Source of the DNA: Candidatus Poribacteria bacterium
GTDB taxonomy: Bacteria; Poribacteria; WGA-4E; WGA-3G
NCBI GenBank assembly: GCA_028821605.1
Contig: JAPPFM010000053.1
Location: 62,001 to 126,000 of the forward strand
DNA: 64,000 bases
Direction: 5' to 3'
Under the pieces are notes generated by a model. The model had not been told where the DNA came from, made no database searches, and worked only from the letters and a program-made list of their open reading frames with translations. Positions 14,547-27,003 of this stretch are shown piece after piece. Positions within the stretch are counted from its first letter, which is position 1, and each line of letters begins with the position of its first letter. Both the position numbers and the translations under genes were made by a program.

Positions 14547-15941
14547 ATGAACACTCGTTTCTATCTATTCATTTCTATATTTTTAATTCTACTCGCATGC
14601 GGTGGAGATCCTACCCTTGAGCGCGGCAAAGCGTTTCTTGAAACAGGCGACACGACTGCTGCCATTCAGCAGTTTGAAGCGGCAATTAAGCAGAACCCTT
14701 CCAATGCCGAGGCTTACTATCAGCTCGGTTTGGTGTATGAAAGGTTAGAGGATGCGACACAAGCGAGTGATGCCTTCAGAAGTGCAGCGAGGTTGGCACC
14801 GAAACGTGCAGAAATCACCTTGGCACTCGGGCGCGTTTATTGGCACCATAATGACCGTTCCCTTGCGCTTGTTCAGTTTCAAAATCTGCTAAGGGGTTCT
14901 CCGAAAAAAGAAGTCCTCCTTCAATTGGCAGGACTCACCGGTGATGCCTACCAGGTCCAACGTCTCCGCACCGAAGGCAGCGACGATTACGAGCAGACCT
15001 TCACCGAAAAAGGGAATATGATGACGTTTACTGCCAAGTACACGGACGATTATAGTCCCGCAATCTCGCCTGATGGGAAATGGCTCGCGTTCGCCTCCAA
15101 TCGCCTTCAGAACACCGAATTGTATCTCATGGATCTCACGACGCGTTCACTCCACCAACTCACGCATACCGAGGAACTTGATGAATATATGCCCGCTTTT
15201 TCTCCAGATGGGAAGTCAATTGCCTTTGTTACAGAACGCACGCGCGGTGGTATGATGCTCCCGCCTGTTCAAGCGAGCGGCTCTGATCCCAAGAGTGCGA
15301 CGATCTATCTCATGGACGTTGATGGGAAAAACCAGCGTCCATTGATTGATATAGAGGGGGCACAACGTGCGCCTGTCTTTTCACCTGACGGGCAAAAGAT
15401 CGCCTTTGAATCCAAGGCACCTGTGCAAGAGACAGGTGGTGGTCCGGGAAGCACAGAAAATAATGATACTTTAGAAATCTACGTCATTCATATTGATGGC
15501 ACAAACAGGAAGCAGCTGACACATAACGATGTAGACGACGGACATCCAACGTGGGAACCCAATGGAAAGCAGATCGCCTTCACCGCAATGGTGGGAGACA
15601 TCTACCAGATTTTCAGCGTCAACGCAGCAGGTGGCACGGCGAAGCAATTAACATTTACGAACGCAAGTCATTATCATCCGACTTTCAGTCCGGATGGCAA
15701 GCGAATTATCTATGTCTCAAACGCGCATAACCATTATACGCTCTGGATGATGAACGCCGATGGCGCAAATAAAACGCAGCTGACCAACCACGTCGGTGCC
15801 CATTTTGAACCGAGTCTCTCACGAGATGGGAAGAGACTTGTATTTAGTTCCGACCGATCGGACCACATGCGGATCTATCTCATGGATTTGACACGACCTG
15901 TCCAACAAGAAGAATTGAAAGCGAGATTGGCAGGCTTGTAG
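14547..15941 (+). CDS. Lipoprotein with TPR and TolB-type (PD40) propeller
   Basis: 464 residues. A lipoprotein signal peptide ends in the lipobox LLAC (Cys at about residue 18), so the protein is membrane-anchored. Residues about 25-140 hold three TPR units (AEAYYQLGLVYERLEDATQASDAF). From about 165 a six-bladed propeller of PD40 repeats runs to the end, with recurring SPDGKWLAFASNR, SPDGKSIAFVTER, SPDGKRIIYVSNA and SRDGKRLVFSSDR. The TolB-like fold suggests protein or ligand binding at the envelope; no catalytic motif is seen. Confidence 0.88.
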   Translation: MNTRFYLFISIFLILLACGGDPTLERGKAFLETGDTTAAIQQFEAAIKQNPSNAEAYYQLGLVYERLEDATQASDAFRSAARLAPKRAEITLALGRVYWHHNDRSLALVQFQNLLRGSPKKEVLLQLAGLTGDAYQVQRLRTEGSDDYEQTFTEKGNMMTFTAKYTDDYSPAISPDGKWLAFASNRLQNTELYLMDLTTRSLHQLTHTEELDEYMPAFSPDGKSIAFVTERTRGGMMLPPVQASGSDPKSATIYLMDVDGKNQRPLIDIEGAQRAPVFSPDGQKIAFESKAPVQETGGGPGSTENNDTLEIYVIHIDGTNRKQLTHNDVDDGHPTWEPNGKQIAFTAMVGDIYQIFSVNAAGGTAKQLTFTNASHYHPTFSPDGKRIIYVSNAHNHYTLWMMNADGANKTQLTNHVGAHFEPSLSRDGKRLVFSSDRSDHMRIYLMDLTRPVQQEELKARLAGL

Positions 15942-16261
15942 TTTATGCAGTAGTAGACACACGCCGTCATGCCGTAAACACCGATTTCCCGATCGCTACC
16001 TCGTCCTACCGAACGCTGACTGCTAACCTATTCTATTTGTATTCTCCGCAAAAGTGTGTTTTAATTATAGTAGGATGGACACACAACTCACCTATTCAAG
16101 AATATCGGAAGGCTGGAAGAAATTTACTCCCCTTCGCCCACCCGCTTTCGGTTGAATAGAGGGATGGAAGGAACAGGGACTGGCAAATCACCTTCTACGC
16201 TTCACCCTTCCTATTTTCCGCTGTGCCTGACATTAAACACACCGAAACGGAGACAACACCC
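15942..16261. other. 320-nt gap without a gene
   Basis: No open frame looks coding. It has an AT-rich patch around 16055-16075 (TTTTAATTATAGTAGG) that could contain a promoter, though no well-spaced -35 box is present. The segment from 16110 to 16210 is rich in GGAAGG and CCTTCC strings and may be a decayed copy of the family D element of 25.5 and 27.0 kb. Confidence 0.4.
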
Positions 16262-17773
16262 ATGAAACAATACATTCAAACCACACTTCTTGTACCTGTT
16301 ATTTCGATGATACTCACTGCTTTTGTAGCGAATGCAGATACCTCCAAAACCACGACTTCGGAAGTTGTGTATCGTTATTACTATCGCGAAAATATTTTTA
16401 CCAAAAGGTATCACCGTTTTTTCCCTAATCCAGCACCTGAAGACCTCTATTACTATACCCGGATGGATGCCCTCGCAAATGTTGATGACACATCCGAAAA
16501 AGAGAGCATTGCTCTTATCGTTATCGATAGGAAACACGGTGCAGACTACGGCAACTGGCACCAAGCGTTTCTCCTTATTACGGACATCAAGACAAGGAAA
16601 CCCGAGAAAAAAGCCTTATTCAAACTTTTTGATACGGGAACTTATGTGTCGGAGGTCCCAGCAGCGAAAGCGATTGCACTTCATAATCCTCCATTCGTTT
16701 TCACTGAACCGATCAATCTCTCCTTTAGACTCGTGGATTTGACGGGTGATGGCACTTTAGACGTTTGGGTGGAATCTGCCCATGGGGTTGCGCTCATCTC
16801 TTTTGAGAACGGTGAATTCAGGGAAGTCTTCAGAAACTACACTCTTACGAGAGAGAAATTTACAGAAACCCCTGATGAATACCACCTTTACGATAATCTG
16901 GCTTCCCGTGAGGGGCGGACGTATCATCGTTTTTTGGGTGTCCCACCACCCGAAGGACTCAGTTACACGACCGTGAAGAAAGCCATTGTAAATATCGATG
17001 ACACATCCGAAAAAGAGACCATTGTTCTAATGATTGCTAATGAAGGAGATGAATGGAACCAAGCGTTTCTCCTCATTACTGATACACAAGCAGGCGAGTT
17101 TCCTAAGCAAAAAGAGTTATTCAAACTTTTCGATGGTGGTATGTATCATATTGATGTGCCTGGGAAAACCATTGAATTTCAGAGTGCCCCCTTCGTCTTT
17201 CGGGAACGGTTCAGTAGGGTCACTTGGGATTTTATCAATGCTACTCACTTTAGACTCGTGGATCTGACGGGCGATGGCACTTTAGACATCTGGGTGAAAT
17301 GTGCCTACGGTGTTGCTGTGATTTCTTTCCAAAACGGTGAATTCAAGGCAGTCTGCGGTGCCTATAGTTCTACCAGAAGGGAGGACCCGATAGAATACGT
17401 TGACTTGGATAACGATGGCATCTACGAAATCAGGATTCCCGACAGAATATCTATCAGCGGTGGTGGTGCTCGCGCGTCGTATCCGGAATGGATGAGCCTT
17501 TACAAGTGGGATGGGAACACCTACGTCTTGGATAATGAAAGATTCTATGCCGAGAATGACGAGTTCCTCATTGGGTTATTGAAACTTTATAATCATGTGT
17601 TGATGCGATATGGAAGATTTGACGAATATGGCTTCTACATAGGACTGGTATTCTACTATCGAGGCGACATTCCAATGGCGCGTAAGTATCTACAATGGAT
17701 CGCCGAACATGCCGAGAACGATAGTTATATCCAAGCCGCAGAAGACCTCCTAAAAAAACTGTCACCCCAATGA
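16262..17773 (+). CDS. Secreted tandem-module protein, paralogue 1 (two modules)
   Basis: 503 residues from ATG 16262, chosen for the GGAG ribosome site and the signal peptide (TTLLVPVISMILTAFVANA). It contains two copies of a roughly 190-residue module: YHRF-hydrophobic-P-E-LYY, then (N/D)VDDTSEKE, QAFLLITD, KKALFKLFDTGTY, FRLVDLTGDGTLDVWVES and ALISFENGEF. A C-terminal region follows (YVDLDNDGIYEI, MSLYKWDGNTYVLDNERFYAEND, FYIGLVFYYRGD, YIQAAEDLLKKL). The DxTGDGTLDxW loops resemble Ca-binding FG-GAP/EF-like turns. I do not recognise a named family. First of three adjacent paralogues. Confidence 0.8.
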   Translation: MKQYIQTTLLVPVISMILTAFVANADTSKTTTSEVVYRYYYRENIFTKRYHRFFPNPAPEDLYYYTRMDALANVDDTSEKESIALIVIDRKHGADYGNWHQAFLLITDIKTRKPEKKALFKLFDTGTYVSEVPAAKAIALHNPPFVFTEPINLSFRLVDLTGDGTLDVWVESAHGVALISFENGEFREVFRNYTLTREKFTETPDEYHLYDNLASREGRTYHRFLGVPPPEGLSYTTVKKAIVNIDDTSEKETIVLMIANEGDEWNQAFLLITDTQAGEFPKQKELFKLFDGGMYHIDVPGKTIEFQSAPFVFRERFSRVTWDFINATHFRLVDLTGDGTLDIWVKCAYGVAVISFQNGEFKAVCGAYSSTRREDPIEYVDLDNDGIYEIRIPDRISISGGGARASYPEWMSLYKWDGNTYVLDNERFYAENDEFLIGLLKLYNHVLMRYGRFDEYGFYIGLVFYYRGDIPMARKYLQWIAEHAENDSYIQAAEDLLKKLSPQ

Positions 17774-17822
17774 AGATGAAAAACGGTCCGTCATCAGACA
17801 GACCGAACCGGAGATAAAAAAC

Positions 17823-18839
17823 ATGAAGCAACACATTCAAAACACACTTTTTGGATTTGCCACCTGCCTCCTGCTGTCGGGGACGGCAGTGAGTGCTGAC
17901 CCGCCAATATCCCAAACTCCTGATGTCACGTATCAACGATTTCATTATGGATATCATCCTAAAGGGCGAATATATCACCGATTTTTACCCTCTCCTGTAC
18001 CGAAAGAACTCTATTACTCTACCAAACTCAAAGCCACTGCAAATATCGATGACACACCAGAAAAAGAAGCTATTGTTCCAATAATTGTTGGTGTAGACAG
18101 TGAGGCATTCTCCAGCAACTGGGCACAAGCATATCTCCTGATTGCTGACACCGATGCAGCCGTGCCCAAGAAAATAGACCTCTTCAAACTTTTTGATACA
18201 GGGATTTATGCGCTGGACGTGTCAGCGAAAACTATTGAACTTCACAGCCCCCAGTTCGTCTTCACGCAACCGCCGAAAGATGCGCTTAAGCCTCCCGATG
18301 TTTCCTTTAGACTCGTGGATCTGACGGGCGATGGCACTTTAGACATCTGGGTTGAATTTGGCTATGCTGTGGCTGTGATTTCTTTTCAAAACGGCGAATT
18401 CAAGGAAATCTTCAGTTCCTACACAGTTCCCGGACCTCTACCCGATGCCGAGTACGTCGACCTTGACGAGGACGGCACCTACGAAATCAAGATTCCATAT
18501 AGCATATATATTGAGGATCTTCCCGGATCACCACATCTGCCATGGATGAGCCTCTACGAGTGGGATGGAAACACATACATCTTGAATAATGAAAGATTCT
18601 ATGCCGATAATAACGATTTCCTCATTCAGTTATTGGGTGAGTATAATTATCAGATGCTTCAACGAGGAGCATTTATCAGTTACTGCGAGACATACAGGTT
18701 CTATTTAGGATTGGTATACTACTACCGGAACGTCAAGGCGACAGGGCATCTGGAGTGGATTCTGGAACATGGGAAGAATGACGATTACGTTCAAGCCGCT
18801 GAATCTATCTTAAAAAAACTGCCACCACTGCCAAGATGA
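17823..18839 (+). CDS. Secreted tandem-module protein, paralogue 2 (one module)
   Basis: 338 residues. A signal peptide (LLLSGTAVSAD) is followed by a single copy of the module seen in its neighbours (IYHRFLPSPVPKELYY, IDDTPEKEAIV, AYLLIADTD, KIDLFKLFDTGIYALDV, FRLVDLTGDGTLDIWVEF) and the shared C-terminal region (YVDLDEDGTYEIKIPYSIYI, MSLYEWDGNTYILNNERFYAD, YLGLVYYYR, YVQAAESILKKLPP). A GGAG ribosome site lies 11-12 nt upstream. It lacks one whole module relative to the genes on both sides, so module number varies within the array. Function unknown. Confidence 0.8.
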   Translation: MKQHIQNTLFGFATCLLLSGTAVSADPPISQTPDVTYQRFHYGYHPKGRIYHRFLPSPVPKELYYSTKLKATANIDDTPEKEAIVPIIVGVDSEAFSSNWAQAYLLIADTDAAVPKKIDLFKLFDTGIYALDVSAKTIELHSPQFVFTQPPKDALKPPDVSFRLVDLTGDGTLDIWVEFGYAVAVISFQNGEFKEIFSSYTVPGPLPDAEYVDLDEDGTYEIKIPYSIYIEDLPGSPHLPWMSLYEWDGNTYILNNERFYADNNDFLIQLLGEYNYQMLQRGAFISYCETYRFYLGLVYYYRNVKATGHLEWILEHGKNDDYVQAAESILKKLPPLPR

Positions 18840-18880
18840 AAACGACCTATTACCAGACAGACCGAAGCGGAGAGAAAAAC

Positions 18881-20422
18881 ATGAAGCAACATTTTCAAAC
18901 CACACTTCTTGTACCTGTTATTTCGATGATACTCACTGCTTTTGTAGCGAATGCTGAGACTCCCAAAACCATCACTTCTCAGGTCAAGTATAACTACTAT
19001 GGCTTCTATTTTCATCACGAGAAAAAGTATCACCGTTTTTTGCCCAGTCCTGCACCGGAAGGACTCCTTTACCATGTCCGAATGACAGCCGATGCAAATA
19101 TTGATGACACCCCTGAAAAAGAGACTGTTGTGCTAATTGTTGTGGGTCCAAAACCGCGCCCACCCTACGACAGTCGCAAATCCTTCGGTAACTGGCCCCA
19201 AGCGTTTCTCCTCATTACTGAAAACACTGCAGACGGAGTTCCGAAGACAAAAGCGTTCTTTAAACTTTTTGACACAGGGACACATCCGTTGGAGGTCCCA
19301 GCAGCGGAAGTCATTGAACTTCACAGTCCACCCTCCGGAAACCTCAAGCTACCGACCGATGTTTTACTTAGACTCGCGGATATAACAGGCGATGGCACTT
19401 TAGATGTGTGGGTGGAATCTGCCCACGGGGTTGCGCTCATCTCTTTTGAGAACGGCGAGTTTCTGGAAGTCCTCAGCCAGTACACGGTGACCCGAGAGAA
19501 ACTCACAAAAACTGTTGACGTTGAGTATTACTCGTACGAGATCGGGTTTGATCCTGAGGGGCATAAGTATCACCGGTTTCTCCCGCCTCCGGCAGCCAAA
19601 GGAGTTTATTACGATACCCAGAGGAGAGCCACCGCAAATATTGATGACACTCCTGAAAAAGAGAACATTGTTCTAATGACTGCTGAAACAGGACATGAGG
19701 AACCCCGCAGCGAACCGGTCCAAGTGTTTCTCCTCATTGCTGAGAACAACGGAGACATGTTGAAGAAAAAAGCGTTATTCAAACTTTTTGATGCGGGGAC
19801 TTATGGATTCGATATCCCAAGGGAAACCATTGACCTTCAGAGTGCACCCCTCATCCTCCCAGAAAAGATCATTAGTCGGGCTTGGTTAGTCGGTCATGTC
19901 TGGTTTAGACTCCTTGATTTGACGGGCGATGGCACTTTAGACGTATGGATAGAATCTTACTACGGGGTGGTTGTGATTTCTTTCCAGAACGGCGAGTTCA
20001 AGGAAGTCTGCAATGTCTACAGTTCTCATAGAAGGGAGGATCCGATGGAATATGTTGACCTCGATAACGATGGTATCTACGAAATAAAGATTCCTACCAG
20101 AATATCTATTGACGGTATCCCGGGCGCGGCGTATCCTGAATGGGTGAACCTCTACAAGTGGGATGGAACGACTTATGTTTTGAATAACGAAAGATTCTAT
20201 GCTGAGAACGACGAATTCCTCACTCACTTATTAGAGAAGTATAATGTTGGGCATCATTTTACAAGAAACGAAGTATACCATTTCTACATCGGTTTGATAT
20301 ACTACTATCGGGGCAACGCAGCAATGGCGAGAGAGTTTCTACAGCGCGTCGTCGAACATGGGAAGAAACAAGATTACATTCAAGCCGCGGAATCTATTTT
20401 GAAAAAGTTGCCACCCCGGTGA
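18881..20422 (+). CDS. Secreted tandem-module protein, paralogue 3 (two modules)
   Basis: 513 residues from ATG 18881 (GGAGAG ribosome site); an upstream in-frame ATG at 18836 overlaps the previous gene and is less likely. The signal-peptide coding region is almost identical to that of paralogue 1 over roughly 60 nt, while the mature parts have diverged. Two modules (IDDTPEKETVVLIVVG; IDDTPEKENIVLMTAE) and the C-terminal region (YVDLDNDGIYEIKIPTRISI, FYIGLIYYYRGN, YIQAAESILKKLPP) are present. Probably secreted to the periplasm or outside. Function unknown. Confidence 0.8.
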   Translation: MKQHFQTTLLVPVISMILTAFVANAETPKTITSQVKYNYYGFYFHHEKKYHRFLPSPAPEGLLYHVRMTADANIDDTPEKETVVLIVVGPKPRPPYDSRKSFGNWPQAFLLITENTADGVPKTKAFFKLFDTGTHPLEVPAAEVIELHSPPSGNLKLPTDVLLRLADITGDGTLDVWVESAHGVALISFENGEFLEVLSQYTVTREKLTKTVDVEYYSYEIGFDPEGHKYHRFLPPPAAKGVYYDTQRRATANIDDTPEKENIVLMTAETGHEEPRSEPVQVFLLIAENNGDMLKKKALFKLFDAGTYGFDIPRETIDLQSAPLILPEKIISRAWLVGHVWFRLLDLTGDGTLDVWIESYYGVVVISFQNGEFKEVCNVYSSHRREDPMEYVDLDNDGIYEIKIPTRISIDGIPGAAYPEWVNLYKWDGTTYVLNNERFYAENDEFLTHLLEKYNVGHHFTRNEVYHFYIGLIYYYRGNAAMAREFLQRVVEHGKKQDYIQAAESILKKLPPR

Positions 20423-20842
20423 GGATTGAAAACGATTCGTCATCAGTGCACCCACTGTAGGTTGGGTTGAACGGATCCCTCCGAAAAATCGGACATAGAA
20501 AATCAACTTCAAAGCTTAGGGGATCCCCGAATGTCCCAAAGCCCGAGTGAAACCCAACACTGTTTTCTGAAAGCGGTGGTTTTGTTGGGTTTTGCTCTAT
20601 TGGCTTACAAAAAAGGCACATTGGCAAGTTAGAGTTTCAGGAATAACAAGAAGGATTAAATTTTTTACCGCTTAGCCCAACCTACGGGACTAAACCCTTG
20701 ATTTTATTGACTTTTCGCTTGTTTTAAGTCGTGAAAAATGATATAATCATTGCAGTTAAAAAGGGAGGCTGCAACCTCAACCGTGAGTGCATTTTCACAA
20801 AGTTTGTGAATGAATCTATGCGATGATGAAAGGCTGTTTTGT
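20423..20842. other. 420-nt gap: repeat element (family C) and promoter region
   Basis: From about 20450 to 20690 the sequence holds GTAGGTTGGGTT (20457-20468), AAACCCAACAC (about 20550), TTTGTTGGGTTTTGC (about 20581) and AGCCCAACCTACGGG (about 20674): two nested inverted repeats around a GGATCCCTCCGA/GGGGATCCCC segment. A promoter follows at 20719-20747. It marks the left boundary of an AT-richer island. Confidence 0.6.
20719..20747 (+). promoter_or_regulatory. Promoter for the methyltransferase-HNH gene
   Basis: TTGTTT (20719-20724) and a perfect TATAAT (20742-20747) with 17-bp spacing; about 95 nt of leader precede the ATG at 20843. Confidence 0.55.
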
Positions 20843-22192
20843 ATGGAAACCATGAATATTAAGTCAAAGACGATATTCACGGGTGACAATTTACCGATAA
20901 TGCGTGGGATAAATAGTGAGTCCATTGATCTCATATATTTGGACCCACCATTTAATAGCAAGACTAACTACGCAGCCCCTATAGGTTCAAAAGCTGCTGG
21001 TGCGGAATTCAAAGATACGTGGACACTTTCAGACGTAGACAACGCATGGCTTGATCTAATTGAGACGAAATATCCCGCTCTGAACCGAGTTATCCATGCT
21101 GCTATGACGAACAGCGATAAATCTTATCTCATTTACATGTCTGCTCGGTTACTGGAAATGAAGCGTATTTTGAAAGATACTGGCAGTATCTACCTACATT
21201 GCGATACGACAATGAGTCATTATCTCAAGTTAGTTATGGATGCGGTGTTTGGGAAGGGAAACTTTCGGAATGAGGTCGTTTGGAAACGAACCGCAGCACA
21301 TAATGATTCTGCAATTTATGGGAGTATTCATGACACTATACTCTACTATTCAAAAGGTGATACCCCCACCCTTAATGAGCAATATCAACCCTATTCTGAC
21401 GAGTATCTCAAGAGGTATAAGCATACGGATGAAGATGGTAAAAGATTTTTGGACAGAGACCTAACCGCTGGTGGTTTAAGTGGCGGTGGGTATCAGTACG
21501 AATGGAACGGCATTACTAAAATTTGGCGGTGTCCGTTTACCACTATGCAGGAATATCATAAATCTGGTAAATTATACTACACTCGCAATGGAACACCGAG
21601 ATTAAAGCAATTTTTAGATGATATGCCAGGTGCGCCTGTTCAAGATGTTTGGATTGATATACCCCCTATAAACTCACGAGCCAAAGAAAGGGTTGGTTAT
21701 CCAACCCAAAAGCCCCTTGCTCTCCTTGACCGCATTATCAAAGCCTCGTCTAACAAAGGCGATGTGGTTTTTGATCCATTCTGCGGTTGTGCGACAACTC
21801 TCGTCGCAGCAGATAGACTTCAACGGGATTGGATAGGGATTGACATATCAGAGAAAGCTGCTGAATTAGTTGTTGAACGTATTAGGGCAGATCAAGGACT
21901 ATTTGAAAATATTATCAATCGCGAGGATATTCCCAAGCGCACAGATTTAGGTGATATTCTGCGATATAATCACCCTAAAAACAAGACCCAATTATATGGA
22001 GAGCAAAGCGGGTATTGTAACGGATGTGGTACACACTTTGAGAAACAACACCTTGAAGTTGACCACATTATTGCAGAAAATGTTGGGGGAACTGACCACA
22101 TTGAGAATCTTCAATTGCTCTGTAGTCATTGTAACAGAGTTAAAGGTGCGCGTGGGCAAGAGTATCTGATCTCAAGACTGAATAAAGATTGA
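20843..22192 (+). CDS. DNA methyltransferase (beta-class N6A/N4C type) fused to C-terminal HNH domain
   Basis: About 449 residues. The start at 20843 has an AAGG site 9 nt upstream; an in-frame ATG at 20810 lacks one. The catalytic motif IV LDPPFNS comes first (about residues 33-39), and the SAM-binding motif I VVFDPFCGCATTLVAA comes late (about 305-320), the order of beta-class amino-methyltransferases. The last about 60 residues form an HNH-like zinc unit: YCNGCGTHF, LEVDHIIAENVGG, HIENLQLLCSHCNRVKG, with two CxxC pairs. A methylase carrying its own nuclease-like domain suggests restriction-modification or a phage-directed function. No separate restriction gene or specificity subunit is adjacent. 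Confidence 0.88.
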   Translation: METMNIKSKTIFTGDNLPIMRGINSESIDLIYLDPPFNSKTNYAAPIGSKAAGAEFKDTWTLSDVDNAWLDLIETKYPALNRVIHAAMTNSDKSYLIYMSARLLEMKRILKDTGSIYLHCDTTMSHYLKLVMDAVFGKGNFRNEVVWKRTAAHNDSAIYGSIHDTILYYSKGDTPTLNEQYQPYSDEYLKRYKHTDEDGKRFLDRDLTAGGLSGGGYQYEWNGITKIWRCPFTTMQEYHKSGKLYYTRNGTPRLKQFLDDMPGAPVQDVWIDIPPINSRAKERVGYPTQKPLALLDRIIKASSNKGDVVFDPFCGCATTLVAADRLQRDWIGIDISEKAAELVVERIRADQGLFENIINREDIPKRTDLGDILRYNHPKNKTQLYGEQSGYCNGCGTHFEKQHLEVDHIIAENVGGTDHIENLQLLCSHCNRVKGARGQEYLISRLNKD

Positions 22193-22258
22193 ACTGTAAA
22201 AACTAACCTTAAGCAATTCAAAACCACTTATTGCAAATTATTTCAGGAGGAAAAGAGA

Positions 22259-23830
22259 ATGAATAAACAACAAAAAGGTCCAAGAAGACATCATTGGAGA
22301 CCACAATGGTATTTAAATGGATTTTCTATACCAGATAATCCAGAGCGTTGTCACGCACTTAATGTTGTATCAGGTCAAGCAATATATAATAGTCATATAA
22401 AAAATCTGGCTGTTGAAAAGGATTTTTACAGATTTTCAGATGATTTTTCGGGTATAGAGCCTCAAGTATCACAATTTGATGGTGTCGTGAGCTCCATATT
22501 CTCTGAAATTGTTTCAGAGAATCAAATGACATTCAGTAACCAACATGAATACGAATATAAAACAGAAATGATGTTGCGTTTTATTGCATACATGATGGCT
22601 TTTGATCCTGCCGTAAGAGACAGCATAATTCATGCAGCTAAATTTATAGCACCCGAAGATATTACCGATAAGAATGATGTAGAACCTATTCCACTGCATA
22701 TAGCCTTTTACTTAGAGTATTTAGGAATTATTAGAAATATGGGAAGTAAAATCGGATTCAAAACATTCACCGCAAGTGATGATAATTTTTTTATTTGCCC
22801 AGATATCATTAATTTTACAGCAACTTATGATAACGAGTTACACTTATGTTTCCCCGTACATAAAAACCTATGCTTCTACGGCTGTTCTTCAAAAGAAATT
22901 TTAGATACACTTAACCCATCTATTGCAGAAATCAATACAATGCTTCTATTTGAGAGTAGGCAATTTGTATATTTTCCCAGTTGGGATTTAAAAATAGATA
23001 ATGGGATCAGTGAAATTCCGATTAAAGATTTAAAAAATAAAGGGATAGATGAAATGATAGAAGTATGGCTACAAAAAAACCCTACTATCATTAACCCTTT
23101 AAATACTGACCTAATCTTCCACATAACAGAAAAACACATACCTGATGACGCGAAAAAAGAAGTCGCAGACTACATAGAAAAAACAATAAGCGATATTAAA
23201 TCTGACATATACGCAATGTGCATTGTGCATGATGAAAACTTTGATGGACGCAGCCCCTTAAGTTTAGACAAATTCACGGAAATCGCGATGCATGTCTCTA
23301 AACTGGCAAACATAAACATTAAGCATTTTTTGTCGGAGAGCATAGCAACTGTATTCTTTCGAATGCATGAGTCTAACGACGGATCAAGCATGACGTTGCG
23401 TGTGGCAAAACGAGATAGTATTAAATCTGATGATGATGCATTAAATTCAAAAATTGTGTGTAATATTATGCCATTTAATCAATGGGTGGAAGTCGTTACA
23501 AACACATTCTACGACAATGAAGGAATCCGTATTGCAACAGAGGGTGCTAATGCTTTAGAATGTCCAACGCATGCACGAGATGCACACTTCTTTTTAGCAG
23601 AGTTTGTATCTCATACACAGATGGAATTAAATGGTATCCGTGAATTGTCCAGGCATGGTAAAGCTGTAGCTAACATTGACGTGCAATACTCGCGGGGGGA
23701 AGTAACAACATCAAATATGAAGTATGCCTTGCTTTTTTTAACTGAAAAAGATGGTGAACTAGTAGAAAATTGTAGTATGCGGGATATTTCAGAAAAAGTT
23801 ATGTCAATTATTGATTCACAATGGGATTAG
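22259..23830 (+). CDS. DUF4238-like protein
   Basis: 523 residues with a strong CAGGAGG ribosome site 9 nt before ATG. The N-terminus RRHHWRPQWYLNGFS, followed by IKNLAVEKDFYRFSD, matches the DUF4238 pattern (H-x-x-P/W-x-x-YL-x-x-F). The rest is mixed alpha/beta without a motif I recognise; residues about 300-450 are rich in Asp/Ser and look like a separate domain. The biochemical role is unknown. Base composition is clearly AT-richer than the flanking operons, and it sits between the methyltransferase-HNH gene and another orphan, all co-directional, pointing to an acquired island. Confidence 0.7.
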   Translation: MNKQQKGPRRHHWRPQWYLNGFSIPDNPERCHALNVVSGQAIYNSHIKNLAVEKDFYRFSDDFSGIEPQVSQFDGVVSSIFSEIVSENQMTFSNQHEYEYKTEMMLRFIAYMMAFDPAVRDSIIHAAKFIAPEDITDKNDVEPIPLHIAFYLEYLGIIRNMGSKIGFKTFTASDDNFFICPDIINFTATYDNELHLCFPVHKNLCFYGCSSKEILDTLNPSIAEINTMLLFESRQFVYFPSWDLKIDNGISEIPIKDLKNKGIDEMIEVWLQKNPTIINPLNTDLIFHITEKHIPDDAKKEVADYIEKTISDIKSDIYAMCIVHDENFDGRSPLSLDKFTEIAMHVSKLANINIKHFLSESIATVFFRMHESNDGSSMTLRVAKRDSIKSDDDALNSKIVCNIMPFNQWVEVVTNTFYDNEGIRIATEGANALECPTHARDAHFFLAEFVSHTQMELNGIRELSRHGKAVANIDVQYSRGEVTTSNMKYALLFLTEKDGELVENCSMRDISEKVMSIIDSQWD

Positions 23831-23887
23831 CCCAAATAATGTATTCTATCATTAATCATATAAACGATATACAAAAGGAGATATTAA

Positions 23888-24445
23888 TTGTATAACTATA
23901 AAGAAAGTGTAAATCAGAAAATTATCATAATGGAAGGATTTGTTCATAATATTGAGCATGGAATATCTAAATCCAGAAAGATGTCCAATTTTTATGCCCC
24001 CAACTTTATTGTTAATCCTTATATTTGTGCATTGATATTTGAATTGTCCATAAAGAGCATGTGGGAACTATCATATTCAAAATCATTTGGTGATAGTGGC
24101 GAAATTAGAAAATATGGACACAATATCAAAGACATATATAAAGACTTGAACACAGATTTTCAACAAAACATATTAAGGTTGTATAATGAAGAAGTTGATA
24201 ATATAAAACCAATGGTTGTAGCATACGGATCACAACATTGTTGTTTCCTCACATTGGACGAATGTCTCACAGAAAACAAAAACATAGTTATGAATGCAAA
24301 ATACCGATTTATACCTGGAAGTAAAATCAATGTAGTCACATGTACTATCCCTTCTAATGGAGAATTAAAAATGAGTGGTCAGCAGCCTCCTCTTTTTCTA
24401 AAACACCTTATTTCAATCATAAAAAATGAGTTAAATAAGGTTTAG
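23888..24445 (+). CDS. Helical protein of unknown function (HEPN-like impression)
   Basis: 185 residues from TTG 23888, placed by AAAGGAG 8 nt upstream; the first ATG (23930) would remove 14 residues. Residues about 40-90 contain long amphipathic helices ending in KYGHNIKDIYKDL, a layout reminiscent of HEPN-type proteins, but the Rx4-6H ribonuclease motif is not visible. No membrane segment. AT-rich like the DUF4238 gene 57 nt upstream, probably its operon partner. Could equally be an unrelated helical protein. Confidence 0.6.
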   Translation: MYNYKESVNQKIIIMEGFVHNIEHGISKSRKMSNFYAPNFIVNPYICALIFELSIKSMWELSYSKSFGDSGEIRKYGHNIKDIYKDLNTDFQQNILRLYNEEVDNIKPMVVAYGSQHCCFLTLDECLTENKNIVMNAKYRFIPGSKINVVTCTIPSNGELKMSGQQPPLFLKHLISIIKNELNKV

Positions 24446-24600
24446 CACAAGGAGACGCAAAATCAATCGCACGAAAAATCGTGCATTGTACTGCCATCGG
24501 AAATTTAGACCACTCTCTAAACCAAGATTGTGATATAATAACAATCTACTTGAACGGAGTATCCGATGACAGTACACTGCCTATATCTATACTATTTATT

Positions 24601-27003
24601 GTGAAACTCAATTTAACTAATCCCAAAACTACTAATTGCGTTTCTATTTTTCTTATCTTCCTCATTAGTGTTGGCTGCAATACAGATTCACCCCAAAGTG
24701 GCGCAAACCCGCAAGTCACCGCGCACTATCAGCGAGGCATGGACGCGTTAGACAGGAATAACTTCGTCGAAGCGGAAGAAGCGTTTCAGGCGTGTCTACG
24801 AATTGATGCCAATGCCCACGATGCACGCATGTTGCTTGCACGTACCTATATCAGACAGCAGAAGTTTGCTCGTGCCGAGGAGACGTTACAAACGCTGATA
24901 AACCTGCTTAAACAGGTCCCGGAAGCGAAGGATAAACTTTCAAGAGCCTATCTAACGTTAGCGCAGGTTTTCAGTTATCAACAACGTTTTTCTGATTCCA
25001 CAGCCGCCCTCACCAGTGCTTTAGAGGTGAACCCCGACGATACCGAGGCACGTATCAGACTCGGCTATTTCTTAGGCGCGCCCCAACAGATGCTCGTCCC
25101 TGATCTCTCAGCATCCAAACGGCAGTTTGAAAAGGTACTGGAACTTGAACCGAATAATCTTGAAGCGATGCTCCAACTCGGCTTAGCTGAATTCCGCCTC
25201 GGTGAAGCCGATAAAGCCGCAGAGCGATTTGAAAATATCATCCAAAATTACCGCCGCCATTCTGGTGCGTATTACTATCTCGGTGTCTATCATCTCCGAC
25301 ACGGCGCGCCTGAAAAGGCTGTTGAGAATTTCAAAGCGTCGCTCCAGCTCAAACCTCGCGATCCCGAAACCTTATGGAACCTATGGACGGCATCTAATGA
25401 ACTCGGTGGCTATCCAGCAGACTTACCGGAGGAGTTTAAAATAGCCATCAGTGGCGTTTGGATGGAAGAAAGGAAGAATGGAAGGATGGGTGTCCCCCAA
25501 TCTTCCACCCTTCCATCCTTCCACCCGATAGCCGATAGCCAATTCACCGACATTGCCCCCGACTTAAAGATGGACAAGATTGATGGCGGACGCGGCAGTG
25601 CTTGGGGCGATTACGATAATGATGGGGATTTGGATATCGTTGCTGTCGGGACGTACCAGCCACACGCGCTTTACCGAAATAACGGCGATGGCACATTTAC
25701 TAACACAGCGGTGCAAGCAGGCATCGCCGATCCGAGAGGCGGTTGGGGTTCGCTTTTCGCTGATTACGATAACGACGGTTACCCTGACCTCTATATCACG
25801 CGTGGGGGTTGGTCTGGTGCAGCGGAGAATACGCTCTATCATAACAACGGGGATGGCACATTCACCGATGTTACGCACGCCGCGGGTGTTGCGGACCCGC
25901 AGAGCAGTTTCTGTGCTGCTTGGGCAGATTATGACAATGATGGCTATATTGACCTCTACGTTGCGGACGGTGTTATTGGTGATGGTGCTGCGAACGTCTT
26001 ATACCGTAACAACGGTGATGGCACGTTCACGAATACTGCTGAAGCAGCTGGTGTGGCGAATACTGGAAACTCTCTCGGAACGGCTTGGGGGGATTACGAT
26101 AAAGACGGGTATATTGATCTGCATGTCGTCAATTTCGGACAGTCCAATGTACTTTACCGTAACAACGGCGATGGCACGTTCACCGATGTCACGCCGACAA
26201 CCGGTATGAATCTCCCCGTTACGGATGCGTTTGTCACCTTCTTTCTCGATGTGGACAACGATGCAGATCTGGACATCTTCATCTCAAATTCCGGCTCGTT
26301 TCAAGCCTTCATCGCCGGGCAAATAACTGGAACTGCGCCACACGATGGCGATAGGCAGGTACTGTATCGGAATAACGGCGACGGCACCTTTACAGATGTC
26401 ACCCATGCGTCAGGACTCTATCACGCTTTCGGCGCGATGGGCGCAAACTTCGGCGACATCAATAGCGACGGTTACCTTGACATCTATCTTGCCACTGGCG
26501 CGCCACAGATGGGACGACTCGAACGCGACGCGCTCTTCCGCAACAACGGCGATGGCACTTTTACCGATGCCACTTTCGCTTTGGGGTTAGGCAACATTGG
26601 AAAAGGACACGGCGTAACTTTCGGTGATATTGATACGGACGGTGATGTTGATATCTACGTGCCTGTCGGGGGTGCGTTTATTGGGGACCAGTGGCATAAC
26701 CTTTTCTATCAAAATACGGGGACAGGGAACAACTATCTTAATTTGAAACTGGTCGGGGTCAAAAGTAATCGAGATGGTATCGGTGCTAAAGTGACGCTGC
26801 GTGTTGGTAGCAGTGTGATTTACAGAGAAGTCAGCGGTGGATGTGGTTTCGGTTCAACGAATAGTCTACCACTTGAGATCGGACTCGGAAAGCACACAAA
26901 AGTTGATACGCTTGAAATCGTCTGGCCCTCCGGTCAGGTAGATACGCATCGGAATCTATCAGTCAACCAGAGATTGGTCATCACTGAGGGAGAGGACCTA
27001 TGA
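24601..27003 (+). CDS. TPR + FG-GAP/VCBS + ASPIC-UnbV lipoprotein
   Basis: About 800 residues from GTG 24601, chosen because it places a lipoprotein signal (IFLIFLISVGC) at the N-terminus; the frame is open back to 24481 with no good start. Residues about 40-280 hold six or more TPRs (AHYQRGMDALDRNNFVEAEEAF, HSGAYYYLGVYHLRHGAPEKAVENF). An in-frame palindrome (25461-25540) bridges to FG-GAP blades (DYDNDGDLDIVAVG, LYRNNGDGTFTDVT) and a UnbV domain at the end (SNRDGIGAKVTLRVGSS). Probably a surface-anchored binding protein. ATGA overlap with pncB. A TATAAT at 24534-24539 may be its promoter. Confidence 0.87.
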   Translation: MKLNLTNPKTTNCVSIFLIFLISVGCNTDSPQSGANPQVTAHYQRGMDALDRNNFVEAEEAFQACLRIDANAHDARMLLARTYIRQQKFARAEETLQTLINLLKQVPEAKDKLSRAYLTLAQVFSYQQRFSDSTAALTSALEVNPDDTEARIRLGYFLGAPQQMLVPDLSASKRQFEKVLELEPNNLEAMLQLGLAEFRLGEADKAAERFENIIQNYRRHSGAYYYLGVYHLRHGAPEKAVENFKASLQLKPRDPETLWNLWTASNELGGYPADLPEEFKIAISGVWMEERKNGRMGVPQSSTLPSFHPIADSQFTDIAPDLKMDKIDGGRGSAWGDYDNDGDLDIVAVGTYQPHALYRNNGDGTFTNTAVQAGIADPRGGWGSLFADYDNDGYPDLYITRGGWSGAAENTLYHNNGDGTFTDVTHAAGVADPQSSFCAAWADYDNDGYIDLYVADGVIGDGAANVLYRNNGDGTFTNTAEAAGVANTGNSLGTAWGDYDKDGYIDLHVVNFGQSNVLYRNNGDGTFTDVTPTTGMNLPVTDAFVTFFLDVDNDADLDIFISNSGSFQAFIAGQITGTAPHDGDRQVLYRNNGDGTFTDVTHASGLYHAFGAMGANFGDINSDGYLDIYLATGAPQMGRLERDALFRNNGDGTFTDATFALGLGNIGKGHGVTFGDIDTDGDVDIYVPVGGAFIGDQWHNLFYQNTGTGNNYLNLKLVGVKSNRDGIGAKVTLRVGSSVIYREVSGGCGFGSTNSLPLEIGLGKHTKVDTLEIVWPSGQVDTHRNLSVNQRLVITEGEDL
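25461..25540. repeat. Family D palindrome plus family A tail, in frame within the TPR-UnbV gene
   Basis: Left arm GGAAGAATGGAAGGATGGG, right arm CTTCCACCCTTCCATCCTTCC, then CCGATAGCCGATAGCC. It encodes NGRMGVPQSSTLPSFHPIAD, located exactly between the TPR and FG-GAP parts. The adjacent pncB gene carries a homologous element read in the same frame. Confidence 0.85.

What the first reader, a model, noticed from the sequence alone, without database searches (positions are those of the whole stretch)
16262..20422. Undescribed tandem family of secreted modular proteins
Three adjacent genes encode proteins with 2, 1 and 2 copies of a roughly 190-residue module (YHRF..P.P..LYY, N.DDT.EKE, LFKLFD.G.Y, DLTGDGTLD.W, ISF.NGEF) plus a common C-terminal region. 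The signal-peptide DNA of copies 1 and 3 is nearly identical over about 60 nt while the mature parts diverge, which suggests gene conversion or selection for variation. I know no named domain with this pattern. Varying module number could diversify binding.
Basis: partly seen in the sequence, partly recalled or inferred. Interest (0 to 1): 0.65.

Follow-up and report, generated by a model that had tools for sequence, protein, structure and literature searches.

The report
Tandem exported FG-GAP/TPR protein genes
Three neighbouring genes in a Candidatus Poribacteria genome (a phylum best known as sponge symbionts) encode exported proteins made of one or two copies of a repeated unit that contains a known calcium-loop beta-propeller repeat (FG-GAP) plus a helical tail; related arrays differ in gene and module number between genomes, but what the proteins do is unknown.

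Summary
Three adjacent same-strand genes (16262-17773, 17823-18839, 18881-20422) encode a Sec-type signal peptide, 2, 1 and 2 modules, and a shared C-terminal region. The module period is about 171-180 residues, not 190. Genes 1 and 3 share a 61-nt identical run in signal-peptide DNA. 'No named domain' is only partly right: the DLTGDGTLD...DLDNDG part is FG-GAP_3 (PF13517, above cut-off in two of three proteins), the model weakly matches integrin-type propellers, and the tail is TPR-like; the rest of the module matches nothing. The family is in about 21 of 85 Poribacteria genomes, in two genera, with 1-6 genes per array. Where flanks are 82-95% identical, the same site holds 3, 5, 2 or 1 genes; in 19 other genomes it is empty and in 8 it holds other cargo (restriction-modification, TIR, secreted ankyrin genes). 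Genes are mosaics of one another, but a flanking single-copy gene is just as mosaic and orthologues are under purifying selection, so 'selection for variation' is not shown. Best reading: a lineage-specific, birth-and-death family of exported binding proteins.

The parts
16262..17773 (+). gene 1: signal peptide + 2 modules + C-terminal region (503 aa)
   Evidence: ORF and translation; domain layout
17823..18839 (+). gene 2: signal peptide + 1 module + C-terminal region (338 aa)
   Evidence: AlphaFold2 model mean pLDDT 80.6
18881..20422 (+). gene 3: signal peptide + 2 modules + C-terminal region (513 aa)
   Evidence: low-confidence model, mean pLDDT 58.7
16262..16336 (+). signal peptide of gene 1 (MKQYIQTTLLVPVISMILTAFVANA, AxA-type site; by eye)
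   Evidence: read from the translation; 61-nt identical run with gene 3
18881..18955 (+). signal peptide of gene 3 (by eye)
16406..16846 (+). gene 1, N-terminal module
   Evidence: profile piece match
16910..17368 (+). gene 1, second module
   Evidence: FG-GAP_3 best stretch residues 334-389
17390..17767 (+). gene 1, C-terminal region (third FG-GAP-like loop + helical tail)
17961..18428 (+). gene 2, single module
18318..18344 (+). gene 2, DLTGDGTLD calcium-type loop (residues 166-174)
   Evidence: sequence; all but residue 172 invariant in 28 relatives
18441..18836 (+). gene 2, C-terminal region
   Evidence: helices at residues 256-332 in the model
19025..19489 (+). gene 3, N-terminal module
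19559..20020 (+). gene 3, second module
   Evidence: FG-GAP_3 best stretch residues 346-401
20045..20416 (+). gene 3, C-terminal region
   Evidence: weak TPR_2 match 466-493, E 0.005
17780..17820 (+). 41-nt leader before gene 2, repeated before gene 3 (18839-18879, 80%) and weakly before gene 1 (16219-16259, 61%); carries the likely ribosome-binding site
   Evidence: direct repeat family D12
14547..15941 (+). conserved left flank: TPR + PD40 propeller protein
   Evidence: Pfam; matched in 35 of 38 genomes of the genus
24481..27003 (+). conserved right flank: TPR + FG-GAP + ASPIC/UnbV protein
   Evidence: Pfam; matched in 36 of 38 genomes
20810..24445 (+). other cargo at the same site: DNA methylase-HNH gene, DUF4238 gene, 185-aa gene
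   Evidence: Pfam and PADLOC; the methylase gene recurs without the array at this site in other genomes

Best explanation
A lineage-specific multigene family of exported proteins in Candidatus Poribacteria. Each protein is sent out by a cleavable Sec signal peptide and folds into a partial or composite FG-GAP-type beta-propeller (each module carries one clear FG-GAP calcium-type loop and, by fold only, a second degenerate blade; a third loop lies in the C-terminal region), followed by a short TPR-like helical tail. Such surfaces usually bind a partner, so the most likely role is binding of a ligand or protein in the periplasm or outside the cell. Copies arise and are lost in tandem arrays (birth and death) at several loci, one being an insertion hot spot between a TPR-PD40 gene and an ASPIC gene; recombination between copies at conserved blocks shuffles modules, and single-module genes seem to have arisen repeatedly by loss of the N-terminal module. 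Shown: architecture, distribution, copy-number change, mosaicism. Inferred: export, calcium binding, propeller fold, direction of module loss. Guessed: the partner.
For: Anatomy. FG-GAP_3 at 30.7 and 31.2 bits against a cut-off of 26.9 in genes 1 and 3; it matches all 28 single-module proteins scanned at E up to 1, best 8.6e-06. Model of gene 2: strands in hairpins around the loops, five helices at the C-terminal end; the leading solved-structure matches are mostly propellers, including integrin alpha heads, probability mostly 0.9-1.0 but E 2e-3 or worse and TM 0.2-0.3. Distribution; none found in viral contigs. Copy number: 1-6 genes per array; same site with flanks 82-95% identical holding 3, 5, 2 and 1 genes, and under 0.6 kb in 19 genomes. 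Module tree: N-terminal modules one clade (96/92), second modules plus eight single modules one clade (99/97). Mosaicism: gene 3 is 85-93% identical to one G008 gene over residues 81-200 and 82-97% to another over 181-440; MaxChi permutation p 5e-4, PHI 0 of 200.
Against: No function or localisation is tested. The first part of the module (NIDDT...FKLFD) shows no FG-GAP similarity by profile comparison, so 'two blades per module' rests on the model alone. The structural matches are weak and the two-module model is poor. Three or five blades would be unusual for a closed propeller. Export is judged by eye.
Confidence: 0.55

Rival explanations
1. A host- or phage-facing recognition repertoire: exported variable binding proteins kept diverse by selection, as in surface-antigen families.
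For: Copy number and content change at one site while flanks stay 82-95% identical; module mosaics with strong breakpoints bunched at the end of the signal peptide and at the two FG-GAP loops (72 of 96); the same site holds secreted ankyrin-repeat genes in two other genomes; both genera with the family belong to one family of the phylum.
Against: dN/dS 0.13-0.33 between orthologues (one block 0.71); a neighbouring single-copy gene is equally mosaic (4.5% of triplets against 2.8%); no host or phage partner known.
Confidence: 0.25
2. Neutral paralogue turnover of a periplasmic scaffold or accessory protein; differences in number carry no meaning.
For: Purifying selection; recombination no higher than in a flanking gene; broken copies in this genome's second array and a stop in one G008 gene.
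Against: Arrays of up to six mostly intact genes and repeated module-number change in many genomes; absence from most genomes of the same genus outside about 20 speaks against a house-keeping role.
Confidence: 0.3
3. A row of immunity proteins against secreted toxins of rivals.
For: Tandem divergent exported paralogues are typical of orphan immunity genes (general knowledge); the site also holds defence genes.
Against: No T6SS sheath gene (PF05591) found in this genome; no toxin gene seen beside the arrays that were read; no PADLOC match for genes 1 and 3.
Confidence: 0.05

Closest known systems
FG-GAP_3 repeat proteins (Pfam PF13517, called VCBS in PMC3909097)
   Same: DxTGDGxxD / DxDNDGxxE loop followed by a strand; Pfam match above cut-off in genes 1 and 3
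   Different: Few loops per protein, a stretch of roughly 100 residues between them that matches nothing, and a TPR-like tail
Integrin alpha-chain beta-propeller head
   Same: Weak fold match over about 200 residues; FG-GAP-type loops
   Different: Seven-bladed and membrane-bound in integrins (general knowledge); here three to five candidate blades and no anchor seen
Eukaryote-like repeat proteins of sponge symbionts (Kamke 2014, PMC3909097)
   Same: Same phylum; that paper reports TPR, WD40, LRR and PF13517 as abundant
   Different: 'FG-GAP' does not occur in its text and the passages read do not describe this module or the arrays

Membership tests
FG-GAP_3 (PF13517) | Score above the curated cut-off (26.9 bits) | tested here: met
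   30.7 and 31.2 bits for genes 1 and 3; 18.3 bits, below the cut-off, for gene 2
FG-GAP_3 (PF13517) | Whole module explained by FG-GAP repeats | tested here: not met
   First part of the module shows no profile similarity to FG-GAP repeats of the window's ASPIC proteins
Integrin-type beta-propeller | Closed propeller of similar fold | tested here: inconclusive
   Propellers lead the matches, but no E below 1e-3 and TM 0.2-0.3
Integrin-type beta-propeller | Calcium bound in the loops | not testable with these tools
   Loop pattern present in sequence only
Tetratricopeptide repeat | Score above a TPR cut-off | tested here: not met
   Best 17.3 bits against 27 (gene 3); helical hairpins in the model only
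Eukaryote-like repeat proteins of sponge symbionts | Interaction with the sponge host | not testable with these tools
   Proposed in the literature for such proteins (PMC3909097); not tested for this family

The most novel reading that the evidence does not exclude
An uncultured symbiont keeps a recombining repertoire of exported propeller modules, swapped at conserved calcium-loop blocks and placed in an insertion hot spot that it shares with defence genes, as a variable recognition system towards its sponge host, its phages or its neighbours.
Probability: 0.2. Interest if true: 0.7.

Novelty: new variant of a known kind. Interest (0 to 1): 0.4.

Why it matters
Sponge-associated Poribacteria are proposed to deal with their hosts through eukaryote-like repeat proteins whose roles are unknown (PMC3909097). 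A family with clear orthologues, clear gains and losses and a fixed insertion site gives a concrete, testable candidate, and the hot spot itself is a place to look for further variable cargo.

Tried and rejected
NCBIfam gave nothing; PHROGs gave nothing for genes 2 and 3 and, for gene 1, one weak match of unknown function (E 0.001) and one poorer one, neither followed; PADLOC gave nothing for genes 1 and 3. The TcdB_toxin_midN match (22.4 bits, cut-off 24.8) lies on the same loop and was set aside as part of the FG-GAP signal. PDB search by sequence gave no usable match. Weak C-terminal matches in seven further genomes proved, in the one read, to be the TPR part of a thioredoxin-like protein, so the count of 28 genomes probably includes seven that are not real members. 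Viral contigs: no relative. Type VI secretion: no sheath gene found. WD40 and ECF-sigma genes beside some arrays are not a constant partner. The idea that mosaicism is special to the array was tested on flanking genes and dropped.

Full report
Check. The three genes, their 2-1-2 module layout, the shared C-terminal region and the near-identical signal-peptide DNA are as described. The within-gene period is 171-180 residues. Intergenic gaps are 49 and 41 nt, with a repeated leader that holds the likely ribosome-binding site, so the three are probably one transcript (inferred).

Anatomy. Gene 2 reads: signal peptide about 1-25, module about 47-202, C-terminal region about 207-338. In the model strands 64-125 surround the NIDDTPEKE turn, strands 161-200 surround DLTGDGTLD, strands 210-254 surround DLDEDG, and helices follow from 256. 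The second and third loops resemble each other, and the FG-GAP repeats of the neighbouring ASPIC proteins, over 17-19 columns at low probability; the first does not by sequence. Pfam places the second-to-third loop stretch in FG-GAP_3. Structure comparison puts propellers first but weakly. The two-module model is poor.

Distribution. A profile found the family in 28 of 85 genomes of the phylum at E 0.001; seven of these are weak tail-only matches, and the one read is a TPR tail of another protein, leaving about 21, all in two genera of one family. The pattern scan of the species genome collection returned only Candidatus Poribacteria, though it finds close relatives only. Arrays hold 1-6 genes. 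Sponge association of the individual genomes was not checked; the phylum has sponge-associated and free-living branches (PMC8546597).

The site. The left flank (14547-15941) and right flank (24481-27003) are conserved in the genus. In 31 genomes where the distance could be read, 19 have under 0.6 kb between them, 4 hold this family (3, 5, 2 and 1 genes) and 8 hold 3.4-7.5 kb of other sequence: type III restriction-modification, a methylase with a DpnII-like gene, methylase-HNH with DUF4238 genes, a CAP12-type TIR gene, an IS1595-type transposase, and secreted ankyrin-repeat genes, in different genomes. The window itself holds the array plus methylase-HNH and DUF4238. So this is an insertion hot spot. 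The family also sits at other loci in other genomes.

Evolution. The module tree has three groups: N-terminal modules of two-module genes, second modules, and single modules; eight single modules fall among the second modules, which fits repeated loss of the N-terminal module. Gene 3 is a mosaic of two genes of genome G008 with a change near residue 190; gene 1 matches a G008 gene at 86-97% in windows from residue 361 to 480. Strong breakpoints lie mostly in residues 20-40, 160-200 and 340-380 (72 of 96; triplets are not independent). The same scan on the flanking TPR-PD40 gene gave 4.5% of triplets above the threshold, against 2.8% for the array and 0% for the ASPIC gene, so recombination is real but not peculiar to the array. 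Orthologous pairs show dN/dS 0.13-0.33; one block of gene 3 shows 0.71.

A second array in this genome (contig C41) has two genes that both change frame at an A7 tract, and in one of them an FG-GAP loop runs straight into the C-terminal loop (FRLADVTGDGTYEIKIPD). Whether the A7 tracts are real or sequencing error cannot be told here.

Conclusion. A real family, undescribed as far as these libraries show, built from known repeat types. Binding is the likeliest work of such a fold; the partner is unknown. Variation in number is shown; selection for variation is not.

Noticed in passing
L097:814-1728: Thioredoxin-like protein with a TPR tail has an in-frame TGA in YTDW*GFCKRLDAET, a possible selenocysteine (UxxC); a 245-residue open frame gave the same weak match in seven genomes (L096-L102), of which only L097 was read.
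   Followed up: partly
L059:6089-9340: A 1084-residue open frame that begins like an ECF sigma factor and goes on with leucine-rich-repeat-like and other extracellular-looking stretches ends just before an array gene's open frame (read by eye, no profile search).
   Followed up: partly
window 15941-24481 and the same site in L109-L116: Insertion hot spot with restriction-modification genes, a CAP12/Pycsar-type TIR gene, a transposase and secreted ankyrin-repeat genes in different genomes.
   Followed up: partly
window 14547-15941: The flanking TPR-PD40 gene is itself strongly mosaic among genomes; in about a dozen genomes only its part after about base 400 matches by DNA.
   Followed up: partly
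L065:7804-10146: Two genes of this genome's second array change frame at the same A7 tract; the longest A run at this place is six in 39 of 73 modules.
   Followed up: partly
L066:10561-12162: One two-module gene of the G008 array is split by a single in-frame TGA.
   Followed up: no
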